Positions 21,366-29,212 of a stretch of 64,000 bases of DNA are shown piece after piece. The notes beneath the pieces are model-generated. The model was not told the DNA's origin and made no database searches. It saw nothing but the letters and a program-made list of their open reading frames with translations. How positions within the stretch are numbered: position 1 is the stretch's first letter; the number at the start of each line of letters is the position of its first letter. Source of the DNA: Planctomycetota bacterium (GTDB lineage Bacteria; Planctomycetota; UBA1135; GCA-002686595); NCBI GenBank assembly GCA_002686945.1, contig NYYZ01000012.1, positions 60,735 to 124,734 of the forward strand. Reading direction: 5' to 3'. A program made the translations under genes and the position numbers.

Positions 21366-22223
21366 ATGATCATGCGAATCACTACAACCCTGTTGATGCT
21401 TGCTCTCCTCATTCTGGGGATTGTCTCCTGGGTGGACTATGAATACTGGCTGATGGCTCCATCACCATCTCACTACACCTGGTGGTGGCCGGAGGAGATG
21501 AGCACTCTTGGACAGCGCTCGGACAATCTGTTCTGGCTGATTCTGGTGATGGTCACGGTGATGTTTGCGATCACCATGGGCGCTCTAATCCTGTCTATTT
21601 GGAAGTTTTCGGCCAAGCGCGAAGACAAGGCGGTCTTCACCCACGGCTCTCACAAGCTCGAGTTGCTCTGGACGGCCATCCCCGCAGCCCTGCTGTTGGT
21701 GATCGCCTTCAGTCAGATGAGCACATTTGCTGCCATGCAGTTCGACAGCTCCATGCAGGATGAGGACGGGCATGATCTGCCGGTGCTTTGCGAGATCTGG
21801 GGCAGTCAGTTCGATTGGCGCTTCCGCTACCCGGGTAAGGATGGCCGCTTTGGCACCAACGATGACTTCGAGAGCGTCTACGAGTTGGTCATGCCCCTGC
21901 GTGACACGGAAAAGGACCACGACAAGAAAAAGGTCATCTTTCTGTTGCGCTCACGGGATGTGCTGCATTCGTTCTTTGTGCCACATCTGCGCTTCAAGCG
22001 CGACGCCGTGCCGGGCATGACCCAGCGCATCTGGATGGCGGTTGACGACAAGCAGCTGGCCGAGATCATGGGCGGGCGCGAAGACAAGACCTTCGACATC
22101 ATCTGCGCCGAGCTGTGCGGATGGGGTCATTACAAGATGAGCGGCAGGGTGCGTGTGCTCCCTGACGCGGAATACGAGGCGTGGGTGGATGAAATGACTG
22201 CCCTTCAATTCGGAAACTCTTGA
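21366..22223 (+). CDS. coxB: Cytochrome c oxidase subunit II
   Basis: The 285-residue CuA subunit receives electrons from cytochrome c in the periplasm. It has an N-terminal membrane helix (TLLMLALLILGIVSWVDY), a second helix (NLFWLILVMVTVMFAITMGALIL) and a cupredoxin domain. The full CuA ligand set is present: H201 in VLHSFFVP and C247-x-E-x-C251-x3-H255-x2-M258 in CAELCGWGHYKM. The segment GKDGRFGTNDDFE (about 155-170) is an Asp/Gly-rich insertion of calcium-loop appearance before the first copper ligand. The AGGAGG site at about 21353-21358 supports ATG 21366. Confidence 0.95.
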   Translation: MIMRITTTLLMLALLILGIVSWVDYEYWLMAPSPSHYTWWWPEEMSTLGQRSDNLFWLILVMVTVMFAITMGALILSIWKFSAKREDKAVFTHGSHKLELLWTAIPAALLLVIAFSQMSTFAAMQFDSSMQDEDGHDLPVLCEIWGSQFDWRFRYPGKDGRFGTNDDFESVYELVMPLRDTEKDHDKKKVIFLLRSRDVLHSFFVPHLRFKRDAVPGMTQRIWMAVDDKQLAEIMGGREDKTFDIICAELCGWGHYKMSGRVRVLPDAEYEAWVDEMTALQFGNS

Positions 22224-22248
22224 AAACGAACTGAACCCGAACCGAATC

Positions 22249-24057
22249 ATGTCTGATACTCACGCATCCAACCCCCGCCCGGGAATGGGCGAAGCCGGGA
22301 CCACGCGCACGAGCCACGAGCACCACGAGCTTGGCTTCATCCGCAAGTATATCTTCTCTACCGACCACAAAGTCATCGGCACCCAGTTCATGTTGCTGGG
22401 GCTTGTGTTCTTCGTGCTCGGCGGCTTGTTCGCCATGGCGATCCGGTACCAGTTGGCATGGCCCTGGGAGAGCATGCCTGTAATCGGTGACTTGTTGTTC
22501 CCCAACACTGGGCAGGCGATCACTCCAGAGTTCTACACCATGCTGTTCACCATGCACGGCACGATCATGATCTTCTTCGTGATCATTCCGCTGTTGACCG
22601 GCGCCTTTGGCAATTTCCTGATCCCCTTGATGATCGGTGCTCCGGACATGGCCCTCCCCAAGCTGAACATGTTCGGCTTCTGGGCTATGATTCCGGCTGT
22701 CTTCTGTGTGCTGATGTCCTTTCACCAGCCTGGTGGCGGACCCGCGGCAGGTTGGACCGCCTACCCAACCCTCTCGACCATCGAGAGTGCGGCTCCTGGA
22801 TCGGTATCTGCTCAGACCTGGTGGCTTCTGGCGCTCACTTGGGTTGGTGTGAGTTCAATGATGGGTGCGGTCAACTATGTGACCACCATCGTCAAGATGC
22901 GGGCGCCAGGCATGACCCTGTTCCGCATGCCATTGTCTGTCTGGGCCCTGTGGATCGCAGCCATGTTGCAGCTCTTCGCCTTGCCGGTCCTGACTGCCGC
23001 AGGTTTGATGCAGGTCGCAGACCGGGTCTTGTACACTGGCTTCTTCACGCCGACGAATCTGGTGATCAACCAGCTCAACCCAGAGGGAGCAGGTGCCGCC
23101 GCGGGTGGCCAGCCTCTTCTTTGGCAGCACCTTTTCTGGTTTTACAGCCACCCTGCTGTCTACATCATGATTGTTCCGGCCATGGGCATGGCGTCTGACA
23201 TCCTCAGCGTACATGCCCGTAAGCCGATCTTTGGCTACAAGCCCATGGTCTACTCCATGAGTTCGATTGCGGGCTTGGGGTTCATTGTCTGGGGACACCA
23301 CATGTTTGCCGCGGGCATGAATCCTGCGCTGGGCATGACTTTCATGGTTGCCACCATGATGATCGCCTTGCCGAGCGCTGTCAAAGTCTTCAATTGGCTG
23401 GGCACCCTGTGGGGCGCACGAATTCAGTTGACCACCCCGATGCTCTTCATCTTGGGGTTCATTGCAATGTTCATCATCGGTGGTCTGTCGGGTATCTGGA
23501 TGGCTGCTACCCCGGTTGACATTTATATTCACGACACCTACATCATCGTGGCTCACTTTCACTATGTAGTCTTCGGTGGTTCGGTGTTTGCAATCTTCGC
23601 GGCGATCTATCACTGGTTCCCCAAGATATTCGGGCGGGTGATGAACGAAACCCTGGGCAAGATCCACTTTGTGGGCAGTTTCATCTTCACGAACGGAGTC
23701 TTCTACATGATGCACCAGCTTGGGATGGCCGGTTTGATGCGTCGTACGGCGGACCCCTACGATTATGAAACCTACGCCCATCTGCAGCCCCTGAACGTGT
23801 TCATCACGATCAGTGCGTTCTGTCTCTTTGTCTGGCAGGTCTTCTTCGTGTGGAACTTCTTCCATTCCATGTTCTGGGGCAAACGTGTCAGTCGAAATCC
23901 TTGGAACGCCTGCAGCTTGGAGTGGGAAGCGCCCTCGCCTCCGGGGCATGGCAATTTTGATCGACCCCTTCGTGTTCACCGGGGTCCCTACGAATACGCC
24001 AGCCCGGATGTGGAAGAGGACTTCTTTGCCCAGACTCGGGAAGTTGAGAGCAAGTAA
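22249..24057 (+). CDS. coxA: Cytochrome c oxidase subunit I (A2-type haem-copper oxidase)
   Basis: The 602-residue catalytic subunit reduces O2 to water and pumps protons. About 12 membrane helices are visible. Haem/copper ligands: His in TMHGTIMIFFVI, the cross-linked FYSHPAVYIM motif (about residues 298-305), the His pair in VWGHHMFAAGM, and the final VAHFHYVVFGG. In the A1 type the motif is HPEVY with a proton-channel Glu; here YSHPxV without Glu is the A2-type signature. The operon context with CtaA and CtaB indicates haem A (aa3 or caa3 type). Confidence 0.97.
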   Translation: MSDTHASNPRPGMGEAGTTRTSHEHHELGFIRKYIFSTDHKVIGTQFMLLGLVFFVLGGLFAMAIRYQLAWPWESMPVIGDLLFPNTGQAITPEFYTMLFTMHGTIMIFFVIIPLLTGAFGNFLIPLMIGAPDMALPKLNMFGFWAMIPAVFCVLMSFHQPGGGPAAGWTAYPTLSTIESAAPGSVSAQTWWLLALTWVGVSSMMGAVNYVTTIVKMRAPGMTLFRMPLSVWALWIAAMLQLFALPVLTAAGLMQVADRVLYTGFFTPTNLVINQLNPEGAGAAAGGQPLLWQHLFWFYSHPAVYIMIVPAMGMASDILSVHARKPIFGYKPMVYSMSSIAGLGFIVWGHHMFAAGMNPALGMTFMVATMMIALPSAVKVFNWLGTLWGARIQLTTPMLFILGFIAMFIIGGLSGIWMAATPVDIYIHDTYIIVAHFHYVVFGGSVFAIFAAIYHWFPKIFGRVMNETLGKIHFVGSFIFTNGVFYMMHQLGMAGLMRRTADPYDYETYAHLQPLNVFITISAFCLFVWQVFFVWNFFHSMFWGKRVSRNPWNACSLEWEAPSPPGHGNFDRPLRVHRGPYEYASPDVEEDFFAQTREVESK

Positions 24058-24066
24058 TCAAGCGCC

Positions 24067-25233
24067 GTGATTGACTCCATCCGCACTGCCCCACTTGCGC
24101 GCACCTCGGCGCGCTTGTTGGTTCTGACCACCCTGCTGCTCTTAGGAGTTGGTGGGTTGGTGACGACCTATCGGGTAGGGATGGCGGTGCCGGATTGGCC
24201 CACTACCTTCGGTCAGACAATGTTCTCCTATCCCCTTGGAGAGATGCTAGAGGATCTGGGGCGAACTCTGGAGCATAGCCATCGCTTGCTTGGAAGTGTG
24301 GTGGGCCTCTTGTCTATTGTTCTTCTGCTAGCCGTTGCCCTGCCCGCCGGGCGGCAGGCCATGACCGCCTGCTGCGTTGGAATTGGCCTGGAGGTAGTCG
24401 CGGTGGGGCAACTCTATACCCAAAGCGGAAGCATCAATGCCGGTGAGGCAGTAGATTGGGCGGCGCCTGCGGGGCCCTTTGCGGGAGCGGTTTTTGTGCT
24501 GTTGGCCGGGCTCATGTTCGGTAGTCACAAGGGTCCACGTGCTCTTGCGCTTCTGACTCATCTGGCGGTCATCGGCCAGGGTATTCTGGGCGGCACTCGC
24601 GTGCTGGAGAACAACGTGGAATTGGCTTTCCTGCATGGCTCCCTGGCCCAGCTGGTGTTCTTGATTGCTGCCTTGACTGCTACCCTGGTGGGCAGTGTCC
24701 GTCTGGTGACCCGATCGGGTAGCTCGGACCTCCAACGGGGACCGTTCCTGTTGTCTGTTCTGACTTTGCTGGCGGTGCTGGGTCAGGCAGTTCTGGGTGC
24801 CTGGACACGCCACACGGGCGGCCACGTGTCTGCTGGTATGCATGCGGTCTTTGCGCTCTTTGTGCTGGGCCTGGTCCTGCTGCTTGCCGGCCGCCTTGGT
24901 GCACTTGAGCGCCTGACCCAGTCCACCGTGTTGGGCAAATTGCGTCGCGGCCTGTTGCAGTTGGTGGTTGTCCAGATCGTGCTAGGGATTGCGACTCTGG
25001 TCGTGATCTTGGTGCTGGCAGGCGGATTCAACGGCCATGTGACCGTTGCTGAGGGGATTCTGGCTTCGGCTCATGTAATGGTGGGGGCTCTGCTCCTGGC
25101 CGCTGTGGGTCGTGTGGCGGTGATTTCAATGGGCGTGCGTTTCCAGCTGAGCCCAGAACCCCTGGTCGAATCGAAGGCTGATTCAACTGGCGTGGATCCC
25201 AGTCAATCACTCCAGGCCGGAGGAATGGCATGA
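24067..25233 (+). CDS. ctaA: Haem A synthase
   Basis: The 388-residue COX15/CtaA membrane enzyme oxidises the C8 methyl of haem O to give haem A. Two family blocks stand out: GMAVPDWPTTFGQTMFSYPL and LEHSHRLLGSVVGLL (conserved His pair), with the second-half counterpart around HTGGHVSAGMHAVFAL and SAHVMVGALLLA. Eight membrane segments are expected. The start is GTG 24067, 9 bases after coxA. The end overlaps ctaB (ATGA). The C-terminal 40 residues are a soluble tail. Confidence 0.92.
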   Translation: MIDSIRTAPLARTSARLLVLTTLLLLGVGGLVTTYRVGMAVPDWPTTFGQTMFSYPLGEMLEDLGRTLEHSHRLLGSVVGLLSIVLLLAVALPAGRQAMTACCVGIGLEVVAVGQLYTQSGSINAGEAVDWAAPAGPFAGAVFVLLAGLMFGSHKGPRALALLTHLAVIGQGILGGTRVLENNVELAFLHGSLAQLVFLIAALTATLVGSVRLVTRSGSSDLQRGPFLLSVLTLLAVLGQAVLGAWTRHTGGHVSAGMHAVFALFVLGLVLLLAGRLGALERLTQSTVLGKLRRGLLQLVVVQIVLGIATLVVILVLAGGFNGHVTVAEGILASAHVMVGALLLAAVGRVAVISMGVRFQLSPEPLVESKADSTGVDPSQSLQAGGMA

Positions 25234-26129
25234 AGCGTTCAACCCAGGTCCTGGTTCAAGTACGGGGCACACAGAACCCTTGGCTGGTGCTGCTGCGCCC
25301 GCGCATAGCCGTGATGGTCATGATGATGGCGCTGCTCGGTGCTGCCGTGGTGCCCGGGTTCTCCTGGGGCTCGGCGATCGAAGCAGCGCTCTTGATCACG
25401 CTGGTCACGGGCAGTGCGAGCATCCTGAATCAGGTACTGGAGCGAGATACTGACGCACTCATGGAGCGAACCCGCATGCGCCCGTTGGTTACCGGAGAAG
25501 TGAGCGTGGGTGCAGCTTTGATCTATGCGGTTGTGCTGGGCGCAGTGGGGGTGACGGGACTCGCAGTACGCTTCAACCTGCTCTCTGCTCTGCTCTCCAT
25601 GGCGACCCTCGTGAGCTACGTAGTGATCTACACCCCAGTGAAGCGGATCAGCACCACCAACACGGTAGTTGGTGCAATTCCTGGCGCGGCCCCACCCCTT
25701 TTGGGCTATGCGGCCTTGGCTGGGAATGTCGGCCCGTGGGCCTGGTGCATGTTTGCGGTCATCTTCGCTTGGCAGTTCCCGCACTTTTTTGCCATCGCTT
25801 GGATCTACCGCGAGGATTATCGTCGCGCGGGTTTCCGCATGTTGCCCACGATTAGCGACGCGAAGGGTCTGGCGGGCTGCCATGGCACGCTTTACGCCCT
25901 CGCCCTGGTGCCAGTTGCCCTGCTGCCGATTTCCTCGGGCCTTGCGGGCTGGACCTACGGTATTGGAGTCACGCTCCTCTCCCTGCTTTATCTGGTCGCC
26001 TCTATTCGATTCGCTCTTCATGAGAATCGCCGGTGCGCGCGCTCACTGGTCCTGGTTTCCCTTTTGTACCTGCCCCTTTGGGCAGTGCTCATTCTGATCG
26101 ACCCCTTCCTGACCGGATCCGTTCGATGA
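25230..26129 (+). CDS. ctaB: Protoheme IX farnesyltransferase (haem O synthase)
   Basis: The 299-residue UbiA-family prenyltransferase attaches farnesyl diphosphate to protohaem, giving haem O for CtaA. The diphosphate-binding Asp motif is NQVLERDTDALMERTRMRPL, and the second conserved block is YTPVKRISTTNTVVGAIPGA, followed by HFFAIAWIYREDYRRAGFRMLP. Seven to nine membrane helices. ATG 25230 overlaps the ctaA stop, and its own stop overlaps coxC by four bases, so translation is coupled through haem A synthesis into subunit III. Confidence 0.95.
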   Translation: MKRSTQVLVQVRGTQNPWLVLLRPRIAVMVMMMALLGAAVVPGFSWGSAIEAALLITLVTGSASILNQVLERDTDALMERTRMRPLVTGEVSVGAALIYAVVLGAVGVTGLAVRFNLLSALLSMATLVSYVVIYTPVKRISTTNTVVGAIPGAAPPLLGYAALAGNVGPWAWCMFAVIFAWQFPHFFAIAWIYREDYRRAGFRMLPTISDAKGLAGCHGTLYALALVPVALLPISSGLAGWTYGIGVTLLSLLYLVASIRFALHENRRCARSLVLVSLLYLPLWAVLILIDPFLTGSVR

Positions 26130-26755
26130 CTACAGCAATCACAAGCTACGATCCCGCGGTGGATGCCCCAGAGCACCACCATCCCGTCTATGACTACGAC
26201 TCGGGCCCGCCTGTTGATCGCGGCAAGTTCGCGATCTGGGTGTTCCTGGGCACCGAAATCATGTTCTTCACCGGTCTGATCGGCACATATATCGTGCTGC
26301 GTGCGGGATCTCCCGAATGGCCAAATCCGGCTCACCGACTTGCCGTGGGCGTCACCGCCTTCAACACCTTTGTGCTGATCTGCTCTTCGGCCACGGTTGT
26401 GGCCGGCCTGTTTGCAGTGCAAAAGGATGATATGGCTGGGCTACGAAAGTGGTGGGGCCTGTCGATTCTATTGGGAGCGGGCTTTGTGGGCATCCAGGTC
26501 TATGAGTACATCCACCTGATTCAGCACGACATGACCCCCAACCAGGATCTCTTCTGGTCGACCTTCTATCTGATGACTGGTCTGCACGGGATCCACGTGG
26601 TGGTTGGTGTGATCTGGCTGGCAGTGGTCTATGTCCAGGCTCTGCGTGGTGGGTTCTCATCCAAGAATTGGGTCGGCTTGGAGCTTGCCGGTCTTTATTG
26701 GCACTTTGTTGACCTGGTCTGGGTGCTGCTCTTCACCCTTATCTACCTCATGTGA
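26126..26755 (+). CDS. coxC: Cytochrome c oxidase subunit III
   Basis: The 209-residue subunit III is of the shorter, five-helix type. Motifs: KFAIWVFLGTEIMFFTGLIGTYIVLR, TFYLMTGLHGIHVVVGVIWL and GLYWHFVDLVWVLLFTLIYLM, the standard closing helix. The first 30 residues are acidic and His-rich (EHHHPVYDYDSGPP), soluble and cytoplasmic. ATG 26126 overlaps the ctaB stop. It stabilises subunit I and holds lipids near the oxygen path in well-studied oxidases. Confidence 0.93.
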   Translation: MTTAITSYDPAVDAPEHHHPVYDYDSGPPVDRGKFAIWVFLGTEIMFFTGLIGTYIVLRAGSPEWPNPAHRLAVGVTAFNTFVLICSSATVVAGLFAVQKDDMAGLRKWWGLSILLGAGFVGIQVYEYIHLIQHDMTPNQDLFWSTFYLMTGLHGIHVVVGVIWLAVVYVQALRGGFSSKNWVGLELAGLYWHFVDLVWVLLFTLIYLM

Positions 26756-26770
26756 TCGGAGGAATCTCGT

Positions 26771-27226
26771 ATGTCTGAAAACCCCCCGCAATTCAGTGTC
26801 AAGAAACTGTGGATCATCCTGCTTGCTCTCACCGCAGCAGAGGTGATCTACGGCGAAATCGGCAACCGAAACTTCTATGAACAAAAGCTGCTGCTCTGGG
26901 GCGGCTTGCTGATCTTTGCTTACTTCAAGGGCTATTATATCTTTCAGTACTTCATGCACATGAAGTACGAGGGAGCAATCGTCAAGGGCAATGTCTGGTT
27001 CACGATCCCTCTGGTGGTCTACTTGATGATCATGCTCTGGCCAGATACGGCCGCCAACGACAAGCTGAACTACGAGATCGCCCATCAGCTTGATCCTATG
27101 ACCGGGGACATTGCGACGATCATCGAAGGCTCACGCAATCTCGTGAACGAGGAATTCCGTTATCTCTATGATGATTATGCTGCGACTCATCCGGGTGCTG
27201 AGATCCACGGAGGGGGCGGGAACTAG
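26771..27226 (+). CDS. Cytochrome c oxidase subunit IV-like protein
   Basis: The 151-residue small membrane protein corresponds to the prokaryotic subunit IV family (COX4_pro/CtaF type). Three helices are visible: LWIILLALTAAEVIYGEIG, LLLWGGLLIFAYFKGYYIFQYFMHMKYEG (family hallmark FMHMKYE) and NVWFTIPLVVYLMIMLWPD. The C-terminal 50 residues are soluble. The start ATG 26771 has GGAGG at 26758-26762. The coding end overlaps the SCO gene start by 59 bases. Confidence 0.85.
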   Translation: MSENPPQFSVKKLWIILLALTAAEVIYGEIGNRNFYEQKLLLWGGLLIFAYFKGYYIFQYFMHMKYEGAIVKGNVWFTIPLVVYLMIMLWPDTAANDKLNYEIAHQLDPMTGDIATIIEGSRNLVNEEFRYLYDDYAATHPGAEIHGGGGN

Positions 27227-28346
27227 CAGCCCTCGAGCGGCGGGCCTGGCTCTCCTGTGCTGCCTTGCCTTTTCCGTCGAGGGGGCACTTGCTTTGCCAG
27301 GTGCAGGTGGGGACGAAGGGCCTCCCGCCCAGGGGGCTGCGTCTCCGCCCGTGGATTCCGAGGTACGCTTCACCATTGTGCCGGAGTTCTCCTTCATAGA
27401 GCGCTCCGGTCAGGTGCTGTCTTTGGACGACTTGGTGGGTGCGCCTTGGATCGCTATCCCTTTCTATGCTCGCTGTATGGGGCCCTGTCCCTCCATGACA
27501 GGGGACTTGCGGGCCCAGGTCTATCCTCTCTTGGCGGGTTCCGATGTGCGCATGGTTTCGTTTTCGGTTGACCCCGACTACGACACGCCGGAGGTCCTGG
27601 GCGAATGGGCCGCACGCTTCAAGGTCGAGGATGAGCGTTGGGTGTTCCTGACCGGTGATTCCTCAGAGATGGAGAACTTTGTGCGCCAAGGCCTCAAAGT
27701 TGCTCTTGCCCGTAGTGGAGATCCTGACCTGGAGCCGGGGCTGGCGATCACCCATGCCACGCGTTTGCCGGTGATTGATCCTGAGGGACGGATCGCTGGC
27801 TGGTATGAGTGTGCAGGCGATGATCTTTCTCGGGAGGAGTTGATCGGGAACATGGTTCTGATGGCTGAGCGTGCCTTGGCTCTGGGTGAATCGTCCGAGG
27901 CCAGGACCTCTGCCTCGATCCTGCCTGTGGTCAATGCCAGCTTGAATGGCATCGCGGGGATATTGCTGGTAGCGGGGCTGATTGCGATCAAGTCTGGTCG
28001 CAAGCAGCGCCATGCGGTTCTCATGAAGTCGGCTTTCCTGGTCAGCGCCGCATTCCTCGTCAGCTATGTCTGCTATCACACCTTGGTCCTGCCATTACAG
28101 GGAGGCCCCACGGAGTTCCATGGCAAAGGGGCCGCCAAGGTGGCTTACTTGGTGTTGTTGGGGACCCACGTGTTGCTGGCGGCTGTCAATCTGCCAATGG
28201 TTCTGCGCACCATCCTGCTGGCCCAGCGCGAGGATTGGGTCCGTCACCGTTGGTGGGCGCGTCTGACCTACCCGATCTGGCTCTATGTGAGCGTGACCGG
28301 TGTGCTGGTTTATTTTGTTCTGTATCATTGGAACCCGACACCATGA
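27168..28346 (+). CDS. SCO1/SenC copper chaperone fused to a DUF420 membrane domain
   Basis: The 392-residue two-part protein starts with a signal or anchor (GLALLCCLAFSVEGALA). A thioredoxin-fold SCO domain follows with the Cu-binding C103-M-G-P-C107 and the distal His196 in ITHATRLPVIDPEG. From residue 245 on comes a DUF420 domain of four membrane helices (NASLNGIAGILLVAGLIAI through LYVSVTGVLVYFVLYHW). SCO proteins insert or reduce copper/thiols at CuA of subunit II; DUF420 is often next to oxidase genes and here is covalently joined. ATG 27168 lies inside coxD (ATG 27177 is an alternative). The stop overlaps the next ATG (ATGA). Confidence 0.9.
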   Translation: MMIMLRLIRVLRSTEGAGTSSPRAAGLALLCCLAFSVEGALALPGAGGDEGPPAQGAASPPVDSEVRFTIVPEFSFIERSGQVLSLDDLVGAPWIAIPFYARCMGPCPSMTGDLRAQVYPLLAGSDVRMVSFSVDPDYDTPEVLGEWAARFKVEDERWVFLTGDSSEMENFVRQGLKVALARSGDPDLEPGLAITHATRLPVIDPEGRIAGWYECAGDDLSREELIGNMVLMAERALALGESSEARTSASILPVVNASLNGIAGILLVAGLIAIKSGRKQRHAVLMKSAFLVSAAFLVSYVCYHTLVLPLQGGPTEFHGKGAAKVAYLVLLGTHVLLAAVNLPMVLRTILLAQREDWVRHRWWARLTYPIWLYVSVTGVLVYFVLYHWNPTP

Positions 28347-28672
28347 GAATCCTGCAATACACAATGATTCCTATGACCCTGATGCTGGCTCTGGCGCCGG
28401 TTGGCTTCACTTGAGACTCTTGTAAAGAGGCATTAGCCAGCGAGGGCGGGTCCCTCAGCGCAGGATTTACCTACAGCATCTATTTCATGCTGGGTGTGGT
28501 GATGATTCTGATTCCTGCTCTCTACGCGGGAGTCTTGTGGAATACCTATCGGGGCCAGCGTGCGCGCAAGAAAGAGGGCAAGGACTTCACTCCTTCAAGC
28601 GGTGCCTTGCGTTGGGTGGATGAGGAACCGCTGGAATCAAGCGATTCCAGCGGCAGTGATTCCAAAGAGTGA
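28343..28672 (+). CDS. Small exported membrane selenoprotein (UxxC), read through TGA at 28412-28414
   Basis: A 109-residue product is obtained if the in-frame TGA is read as selenocysteine. Residues 1-23 form a signal peptide (MIPMTLMLALAPVGFT core). U24-D-S-C27-K-E-A-L-A follows, a UxxC redox motif in place of CxxC. One membrane helix comes next (about 42-66, YSIYFMLGVVMILIPALYAGVLW), then a basic-to-acidic cytoplasmic tail ending SDSKE. ATG 28343 overlaps the SCO stop (ATGA). A hairpin with loop CGGGU lies 32 nt after the TGA. I recall short C-P-x-C-K-E-A proteins beside oxidase genes elsewhere, but have not verified it. Position after SCO suggests thiol or copper handling at CuA. Without readthrough only an orphan fragment from 28487 would remain. 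Confidence 0.82.
28440..28459 (+). promoter_or_regulatory. Putative bacterial SECIS hairpin (cox-linked selenoprotein)
   Basis: Stem GAGGG (28442-28446) pairs perfectly with CCCTC (28452-28456) around loop CGGGT (28447-28451). Two further pairs (28440-28441 with 28458-28459) form across a bulged A. The loop starts 33 nt after the TGA, within the usual window for bacterial SECIS elements, and has G at its second position. The hairpin lies inside the coding region, as expected for bacteria. Confidence 0.65.
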
Positions 28673-28675
28673 GTC

Positions 28676-29212
28676 ATGGCTGCGTCTCTTCTGCGTAGGG
28701 TCGTGAAGAGCCCTTTCGGATCCTTCGAGTTGATCGGAAACGATCAGGGTTTGGTCTGGGTCTCTTTGCCAGGGCTGGGCGCCACCAGTGGCAGAGACGC
28801 ACATCTTGCCCGTTGGTATGAAGGGGTTGAACTCAAAGACGCTCCTCGCTCTCACGGGGATGGGGTGCGTGCCTTGAAGGGTTGGGTAGGGGGTGATTTC
28901 AAGCCTTTCAAATTGCGGCTTGCGCCAATGGGGACTCCCTTTCAGCTTGAAGTCTGGCACGCTCTCAGGCGCGTCAACGCAGGCAGGACCTTGACCTATG
29001 GAGAACTGGCCGCACGGGTGGGGCGGCCTGGGGCAGCCCGGGCAGTGGGCACGGCCATGAGGAAGAACCCTCTGCCACTGTTTGTGCCTTGCCATCGCGT
29101 GCTGGCGGGCAGCGGTCTGGGAGGATTCTCTGGTGGCGTTTGTGGAGCTCTTGATCTCAAGCGCCGAATGCTGGAGCACGAAGGGGCCTGGCCCTTGCTT
29201 ACGCGGGCTTGA
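28676..29212 (+). CDS. ogt: Methylated-DNA-protein cysteine methyltransferase
   Basis: The 178-residue suicide DNA-repair protein accepts the alkyl group from O6-alkylguanine. The active site is LFVPCHRVLAGSGLGGFSGG, with the acceptor Cys139, preceded by GTPFQLEVWHALRRVNAGRTLTYGELAARVGRPGAARAVGTAMRKNP, including the recognition-helix Arg/Asn pattern. The N-terminal domain is short as in Ogt/MGMT, with no Ada-type metal Cys box. ATG 28676 is four bases after the selenoprotein stop, so it is probably co-transcribed with the cox operon, although unrelated in function. Confidence 0.93.
   Translation: MAASLLRRVVKSPFGSFELIGNDQGLVWVSLPGLGATSGRDAHLARWYEGVELKDAPRSHGDGVRALKGWVGGDFKPFKLRLAPMGTPFQLEVWHALRRVNAGRTLTYGELAARVGRPGAARAVGTAMRKNPLPLFVPCHRVLAGSGLGGFSGGVCGALDLKRRMLEHEGAWPLLTRA

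What the first reader, a model, noticed from the sequence alone, without database searches (positions are those of the whole stretch)
28343..28672. Candidate new small selenoprotein (UxxC) at the end of the cytochrome oxidase operon
Seen: ATG 28343 overlaps the SCO stop. The frame runs through a signal peptide, then TGA (28412-28414), then D-S-C-K-E-A-L-A, a membrane helix and a charged tail to 28672. The TGA sits at the first Cys position of a C-x-x-C-like motif, and the protein makes sense only if read through. A hairpin with 32 nt spacing follows. Known: selenocysteine in UxxC motifs replaces CxxC in thiol redox proteins. Inference: a periplasmic, membrane-anchored thiol reductant or copper-handling factor acting with SCO on the CuA site. 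I know of no described selenoprotein family of this kind in an aa3 oxidase operon.
Basis: partly seen in the sequence, partly recalled or inferred. Interest (0 to 1): 0.95.

Follow-up and report, generated by a model that had tools for sequence, protein, structure and literature searches.

The report
New selenoprotein of the oxidase operon
A small gene at the end of a planctomycete respiratory-oxidase operon carries an in-frame TGA that is predicted to encode selenocysteine; its relatives across the phylum have TGA or a cysteine codon at that spot, and the membrane protein likely keeps the oxidase's copper-binding cysteines reduced, so that selenium would feed into aerobic respiration.

Summary
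The window's genome has selA, selB, tRNA-Sec and selD (selD with its own in-frame TGA). Of 61 related genomes 27 have the gene: 25 with TGA at the aligned codon, 2 with TGC. Of 392 Planctomycetota genomes 87 match (89 loci): 28 UxxC, 12 CxxU, 46 CxxC, 3 unclassified; no TAA or TAG was seen there. In genomes at least 90% complete, TGA forms have selB in 23 of 23, Cys-only forms in 12 of 34. Outside the window's genus a GGUC-loop hairpin sits at +18 after the TGA (fdhF: +19) with compensatory changes; in the window's genus a different hairpin is present, in the window itself no stabler than chance. Codons after the TGA are under protein-level selection. SCO or DUF420 is nearby in 45 of 50 UxxC loci. 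No Pfam or NCBIfam model reaches its cut-off, and a 119-family review table lists nothing like it. Function is inferred: a tiny membrane-anchored selenol/thiol reductant for SCO and the CuA site, doing the job of TlpA or COA6.

The parts
28343..28672 (+). selenoprotein gene, 109 residues with U24 (stop included in coordinates)
28412..28414 (+). in-frame TGA, predicted selenocysteine codon, first position of the UxxC pair (28412-28423)
   Evidence: TGA at the aligned codon in 25 of 27 relatives; TGA or Cys codon phylum-wide
28442..28456 (+). candidate SECIS hairpin of the window's genus: stem GAGGG/CCCTC, loop CGGGT, GGTC at +35
   Evidence: sequence; kept in the genus; stability in this window not above chance
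28343..28411 (+). predicted signal sequence (residues 1-23), ending G-F-T before U24
   Evidence: sequence; Gly or Ala at -3 in 50 of 51 UxxC loci; helix 2-17 in the model
28472..28540 (+). predicted membrane helix (residues 44-66), positively charged tail after it
   Evidence: sequence; helix 38-77 in the AlphaFold2 model, pLDDT about 80-92 over residues 41-70
27168..28346 (+). SCO1/SenC-DUF420 (CtaM-like) fusion gene, overlapping the start of the selenoprotein gene
   Evidence: PF02630 and PF04238 over cut-off
21366..27226 (+). oxidase operon: coxB, coxA, ctaA-like, ctaB, coxC, coxD
   Evidence: Pfam, over cut-off except the ctaA-like gene (E 2.5e-5, below cut-off)

Best explanation
The gene carries an in-frame TGA that is predicted to be decoded as selenocysteine, giving a small membrane-anchored protein whose periplasmic UxxC pair likely reduces the disulfides of SCO and of the CuA cysteines in CoxB so that copper can be loaded. 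Shown by calls: codon conservation, TGA/Cys exchange at both positions of the pair, Sec machinery, a covarying GGUC-loop hairpin in relatives, and the operon with SCO-DUF420. Predicted: export, with Sec at or near the first residue of the mature protein, a membrane helix behind it, tail inside. Inferred: electrons come from a DsbD-type membrane reductase, pass to the selenol/thiol pair and then to the CxxxC of SCO and the CxExC of CoxB, the job that TlpA does in Bradyrhizobium and COA6 is proposed to do in mitochondria. My odds: selenoprotein 0.96; given that, reductant for SCO/CuA about 0.55, copper ligand or Cu(II) reductant 0.25, other 0.2.
For: selA, tRNA-Sec, selB and selD in the genome. 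TGA in 25 of 27 relatives, TGC in 2. Phylum-wide 28 UxxC, 12 CxxU, 46 CxxC, 3 unclassified of 89 loci. selB in 34 of 40 genomes with a TGA form against 19 of 44 with Cys only (p 9e-5); 23 of 23 against 12 of 34 at 90% completeness or more (p 2e-7, relatedness ignored). pN/pS 0-0.45. GGTC at +18 in 22 of 28 UxxC and 2 of 46 CxxC loci; in CxxU loci GGT lies at +18..+21 of their own TGA in 10 of 12. Hairpin on 44 sequences: 94.7% paired, 19 double-changed cells, 0 of 500 shuffles as high. SCO or DUF420 in 45 of 50 UxxC loci. PCuAC absent in 37 of 37 family genomes; DsbD-type reductase in 59 of 61 relatives. TlpA and COA6 precedents (passages).
Against: No expression, selenium or redox data. In the window's genus the GGUC hairpin at +18 is lost and the replacement in the window is not unusually stable. 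Six genomes with a TGA form lack a selB hit, all under 90% complete, as do three of the relatives (one is in both sets). No DsbD-type reductase was found in the window's own, incomplete genome. Eleven of 37 family genomes gave no hit for the gene, so it is not always present. CxxU forms are near SCO/DUF420 in only 4 of 12 loci and 14 of 46 CxxC loci show no SCO/DUF420 in their flanks, so the link with SCO is not universal.
Confidence: 0.55

Rival explanations
1. Same selenoprotein, but the UxxC pair would be a copper ligand: it takes Cu(I) near the CtaM/DUF420 part and hands it to SCO, or reduces Cu(II) first, standing in for PCuAC.
For: Fused neighbour SCO-DUF420; CtaM proposed to export or reduce copper for Sco, with planctomycete fusions noted (passages of PMC13344008); PCuAC absent in 37 of 37 family genomes.
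Against: No His or Met ligand is conserved next to the pair: conserved residues of the Sec-type alignment are Cys, Ala, Gly, Ser, Leu and Phe or Arg. Sec at a copper site would bind tightly, which suits transfer less (inference).
Confidence: 0.25
2. A small structural subunit of the oxidase or its assembly complex, in which the pair forms a fixed selenosulfide or disulfide.
For: Single-helix protein in cox operons; the AlphaFold2 model shows helices only.
Against: Sec occurs at either position of the pair (28 UxxC, 12 CxxU), which fits a redox pair better than a bridge; part of the homologs lie away from cox genes.
Confidence: 0.13
3. The TGA is a true stop (pseudogene, sequencing error or a 23-residue leader peptide) or the code is reassigned.
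For: Gene callers stop there; the gene's own end and the SCO end are TGA stops. No hit in the protein database for a Sec-type consensus.
Against: Purifying selection after the TGA; same TGA in 51 UxxC and 12 CxxU distinct loci, no TAA or TAG seen; selB and tRNA-Sec present; TGA is also used as stop in the same gene, against reassignment.
Confidence: 0.03

Closest known systems
TlpA (membrane-anchored thiol reductase of ScoI and CoxB in Bradyrhizobium)
   Same: Proposed job: keeps SCO and CuA cysteines reduced; membrane-anchored, periplasmic CxxC-type pair (passages)
   Different: TlpA has a thioredoxin fold; this protein has about 20 residues between its two hydrophobic stretches and no Trx domain match
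COA6 (mitochondrial CuA assembly factor)
   Same: Small protein proposed to reduce SCO and COX2 disulfides (passages of PMC8773535)
   Different: COA6 is a soluble CHCH protein with CX9C-CX10C; no sequence relation claimed
Prokaryotic selenoproteins with UxxC (Trx-like, DsbA-like, DsbG-like, GOS_C and others)
   Same: Sec exchanged with Cys in a UxxC pair (table in PMC13188914)
   Different: None of the listed families is described as a small SCO-linked membrane protein; no NCBIfam hit over cut-off
FixS/CcoS (cbb3 oxidase maturation, single helix)
   Same: Small single-helix protein of an oxidase gene cluster
   Different: Pfam match E 0.42, 10.8 bits against a cut-off of 23.1
PCuAC / CtaK (small copper partners of SCO)
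   Same: Would share the slot of SCO partner at the CuA site
   Different: No PF04314 match; PCuAC absent from 37 of 37 family genomes

Membership tests
Bacterial selenoprotein | In-frame TGA conserved, exchanged with Cys in homologs | tested here: met
   25 TGA and 2 TGC of 27; 40 loci with TGA in the pair, 46 CxxC of 89
Bacterial selenoprotein | selA, selB, selC, selD in the genome | tested here: met
Bacterial selenoprotein | SECIS hairpin shortly after the TGA | tested here: inconclusive
   Met in relatives; in the window's genus a different hairpin is present, in the window not above chance in stability
Bacterial selenoprotein | Selenium in the product | not testable with these tools
   Needs 75Se labelling or mass spectrometry
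Known selenoprotein families (NCBIfam, Pfam) | Match to a family model over cut-off | tested here: not met
   5 proteins scanned, none over cut-off; that NCBIfam holds every model of the review table was not checked
Thioredoxin-like reductant (TlpA) | Thioredoxin fold | tested here: not met
   No Trx match in Pfam; AlphaFold2 model, mean pLDDT 68, has helices only
Thioredoxin-like reductant (TlpA) | Reduces SCO and CoxB disulfides | not testable with these tools
   Needs biochemistry; context only
PCuAC copper chaperone | PF04314 domain | tested here: not met
   No match
FixS/CcoS | PF03597 over cut-off | tested here: not met
   10.8 bits against 23.1

The most novel reading that the evidence does not exclude
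A phylum-wide family of minimal selenol reductants made for the CuA site: selenocysteine is the first residue of the mature, membrane-tethered protein, has switched between the two positions of the redox pair (UxxC, CxxU, CxxC) together with its SECIS, and makes aerobic respiration in many Planctomycetota depend on selenium.
Probability: 0.4. Interest if true: 0.87.

Novelty: new variant of a known kind. Interest (0 to 1): 0.76.

Why it matters
Most characterized selenoproteins have a Trx-like fold (PMC13188914, section 7). This one shows no known fold, is carried by many Planctomycetota and sits in the operon of the aerobic terminal oxidase, so it would tie selenium supply to oxygen respiration. 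Stop-at-TGA gene calling cuts it to 23 residues, which would explain why a Sec-type consensus found no relative in 5.8 billion predicted proteins. It makes testable the question of what reduces SCO and the CuA site in bacteria of this kind, and it shows selenocysteine at either position of one redox pair with the SECIS in matching register.

Tried and rejected
Rejected: true stop or pseudogene (pN/pS, conserved TGA, no TAA or TAG seen); code reassignment, since the same gene and SCO end in TGA and selB and tRNA-Sec exist; membership in a family held by Pfam or NCBIfam or described in the review table.

Led nowhere: Rfam at gathering thresholds found only RNase P in the window. Folding energy of the 51-75 nt after the TGA is a poor test: of 32 TGA sequences tested against synonymous shuffles, 3 lie below z -2 (for the window). 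The Sec-type consensus found nothing in the protein database. The AlphaFold2 model is too weak for a fold search, so none was run. The supplementary list of selenoproteins of two Planctomycetes (PMC4807772, S9 Table) could not be opened, so a relative listed there is not excluded; passages of that paper were seen.

Counts and rows dropped: 9 of the 16 loci repeat loci. One search used 50 of 51 UxxC loci (one with the same 57 nt after the TGA as another was dropped). One search used 44 of 51 (7 window-genus loci left out, as their hairpin lies elsewhere); one search used 42 (two more lack GGTC at +18). Three phylum loci (L108, L137, L149) had no clear motif and were left out of the U/C counts. 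The Fisher test ignores relatedness, and one family (f32) supplies many Cys-only genomes without selB. The hairpin was drawn from the same sequences on which it was counted.

Full report
Observation. The ORF at 28343-28672 is as described: its ATG overlaps the TGA stop of the upstream gene, it has one internal TGA at 28412-28414, the motif U-D-S-C-K, a hydrophobic stretch and a charged tail, 109 residues. The upstream gene is a SCO1/SenC-DUF420 fusion, preceded by coxD, coxC, ctaB, a ctaA-like gene, coxA, coxB and a cytochrome c gene (Pfam). CoxB has C-A-E-L-C-GWG-H-YK-M, the CuA pattern given in PMC9145763 (passage), and SCO has a CxxxC (sequences). Three bases downstream starts an O6-methylguanine methyltransferase gene.

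Sec machinery. The window's genome (2.82 Mb, 53 contigs, 78.6% complete) has selA (E 7e-115), tRNA-Sec (73.7 bits; ARAGORN agrees), selB (348 bits, over cut-off) and, beside selA, a selD with an in-frame TGA of its own in its N-terminal region (its naming as selD rests on the recalled sequence pattern and its place beside selA).

Relatives. A search of 61 genomes found the gene in 27: 26 of the 37 genomes of the window's family f1 and one other. At the aligned codon 25 have TGA and 2 have TGC. All 16 confirmed loci of a scan of named genome contigs have TGA; 13 record titles say planctomycete or Planctomycet-, 3 only 'bacterium'; 9 of the 16 are loci already seen. selB is over cut-off in 58 of 61 relatives; the three misses (G029, G031, G035) carry the TGA form and are 80-89% complete.

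Phylum. A profile search of 392 Planctomycetota genomes matched 87 genomes at 89 loci. All 89 were read: 28 UxxC in 10 families, 12 CxxU in 6 families, 46 CxxC in 22 families, 3 unclassified. TGA thus occurs at either position of the same pair. Genomes with a TGA form have selB in 34 of 40, genomes with Cys only in 19 of 44 (p 9e-5); at 90% completeness or more, 23 of 23 against 12 of 34 (p 2e-7) (selB). The test ignores relatedness. Over distinct loci there are 51 UxxC, 12 CxxU and 46 CxxC: 63 TGA, no TAA or TAG seen. A profile of Cys forms finds 554 database proteins; of the 120 listed none has a Pfam domain, and those with a named organism are planctomycetes (that Alienimonas is one is recalled).

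Protein-level selection. Over 64 codons after the TGA, pN/pS in eight pairs from the genus is 0 to 0.45 (0.06 for L011/L012, 0.23 for L011/L014); three of the pairs read one or two bases out of frame give 1.03 to 2.47.

SECIS. In relatives outside the genus the codons after the TGA form a 6-bp stem with a GGUC loop at +18. The codons GCG and GTC there are invariant in 25 of 25 f1 sequences, while further down the same genes GCG is 59 of 106 Ala codons and GTC 36 of 93 Val codons. GGTC at +18 occurs in 22 of 28 UxxC and 2 of 46 CxxC loci of the phylum set. In CxxU loci GGT lies at +18 to +21 of their own TGA in 10 of 12, against 1 of 46 CxxC loci measured from the same codon, so it is in register with the TGA. 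A hairpin of 4 bp or more with GGU in or at the loop is seen in 25 of 28 UxxC, 6 of 12 CxxU and 4 of 46 CxxC loci. E. coli fdhF has GGTC at +19. On 44 UxxC sequences 94.7% of cells pair, 5 of 6 pairs show changes on both sides, and 19 cells are double-changed against 3.4 in shuffles (0 of 500 as high); sliding the arm lowers pairing to 36-79%. On 25 f1 sequences alone 97.3% pair and 4 cells are double-changed. Relatedness is not removed by these controls. In the window's genus that loop is lost and another hairpin (28442-28456, GGTC at +35) is present; the genome's own selD has GGTC at +33. In the window this region is not unusually stable, so it is weak evidence alone; in two species of the genus it is (z -2.8 and -2.7).

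Context. On the same strand, SCO or DUF420 lies within the fetched flanks in 45 of 50 UxxC, 32 of 46 CxxC and 4 of 12 CxxU loci; any of SCO, DUF420, cox or cta genes in 48, 37 and 4; DUF420 ends within 200 nt upstream in 39, 27 and 3. Flanks were mostly 1.5 kb, some cut by contig ends.

Mechanism. CuA and SCO cysteines must be reduced before they take copper; TlpA does this in Bradyrhizobium and COA6 is proposed to do it in mitochondria (passages of PMC6696091 and PMC8773535). DUF420 (CtaM) is proposed to export copper for Sco, and planctomycete SCO-CtaM fusions are noted (passages of PMC13344008). The small protein matches no Trx family; AlphaFold2 gives helices only, at mean pLDDT 68. The residue at -3 of the pair is Gly or Ala in 50 of 51 UxxC loci and that at -1 is Thr, Ala, Gly or Ser in 49 of 51, so signal-peptidase cleavage could leave Sec at the mature N-terminus (prediction; in CxxU forms a Gln mostly comes first). 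PCuAC is absent in all 37 genomes of family f1 and found in 3 of 61 overall. A DsbD-type membrane reductase is found in 59 of 61, though not in the window's own incomplete genome. I therefore favour a selenol/thiol reductant for SCO and CuA fed by a DsbD-type donor; a copper-ligand role remains open.

Novelty. Scans of 5 proteins gave nothing over cut-off in NCBIfam or Pfam. The table of PMC13188914, said there to hold 119 families or subfamilies, was read whole and names nothing tied to SCO or an aa3 oxidase. Listings of searches showed no such protein; passages of PMC12013277, PMC9145763 and PMC4807772 were seen. Most subscription journals, and all supplements, were out of reach. I file it as a new selenoprotein family.

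Noticed in passing
L010:7083-8210 (-), contig C48 of the window's genome: selD beside selA has an in-frame TGA of its own (CAG-U-AAK), with GGTC at +33 after it.
   Followed up: partly
L090, L106, L110, L118, L120, L126, L128, L130, L138, L144, L145, L148: Homologs with the TGA at the second position of the pair (CxxU, often CxMU), mostly with Gln before the first Cys; 8 of 12 show no SCO or DUF420 in their flanks.
   Followed up: partly
window 28676-29212: An O6-methylguanine methyltransferase gene follows 3 nt after the selenoprotein gene; a relative of it is found in the flanks of 15 of 50 UxxC loci.
   Followed up: no
L078 and L091 (genome G148): One genome holds two paralogs, one UxxC and one CxxC.
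   Followed up: no
L108 (genome G252), match at 1501-1608: A family-like helix preceded by Q-S-A-K-U-U, two TGA codons in a row and no Cys; left unclassified.
   Followed up: no
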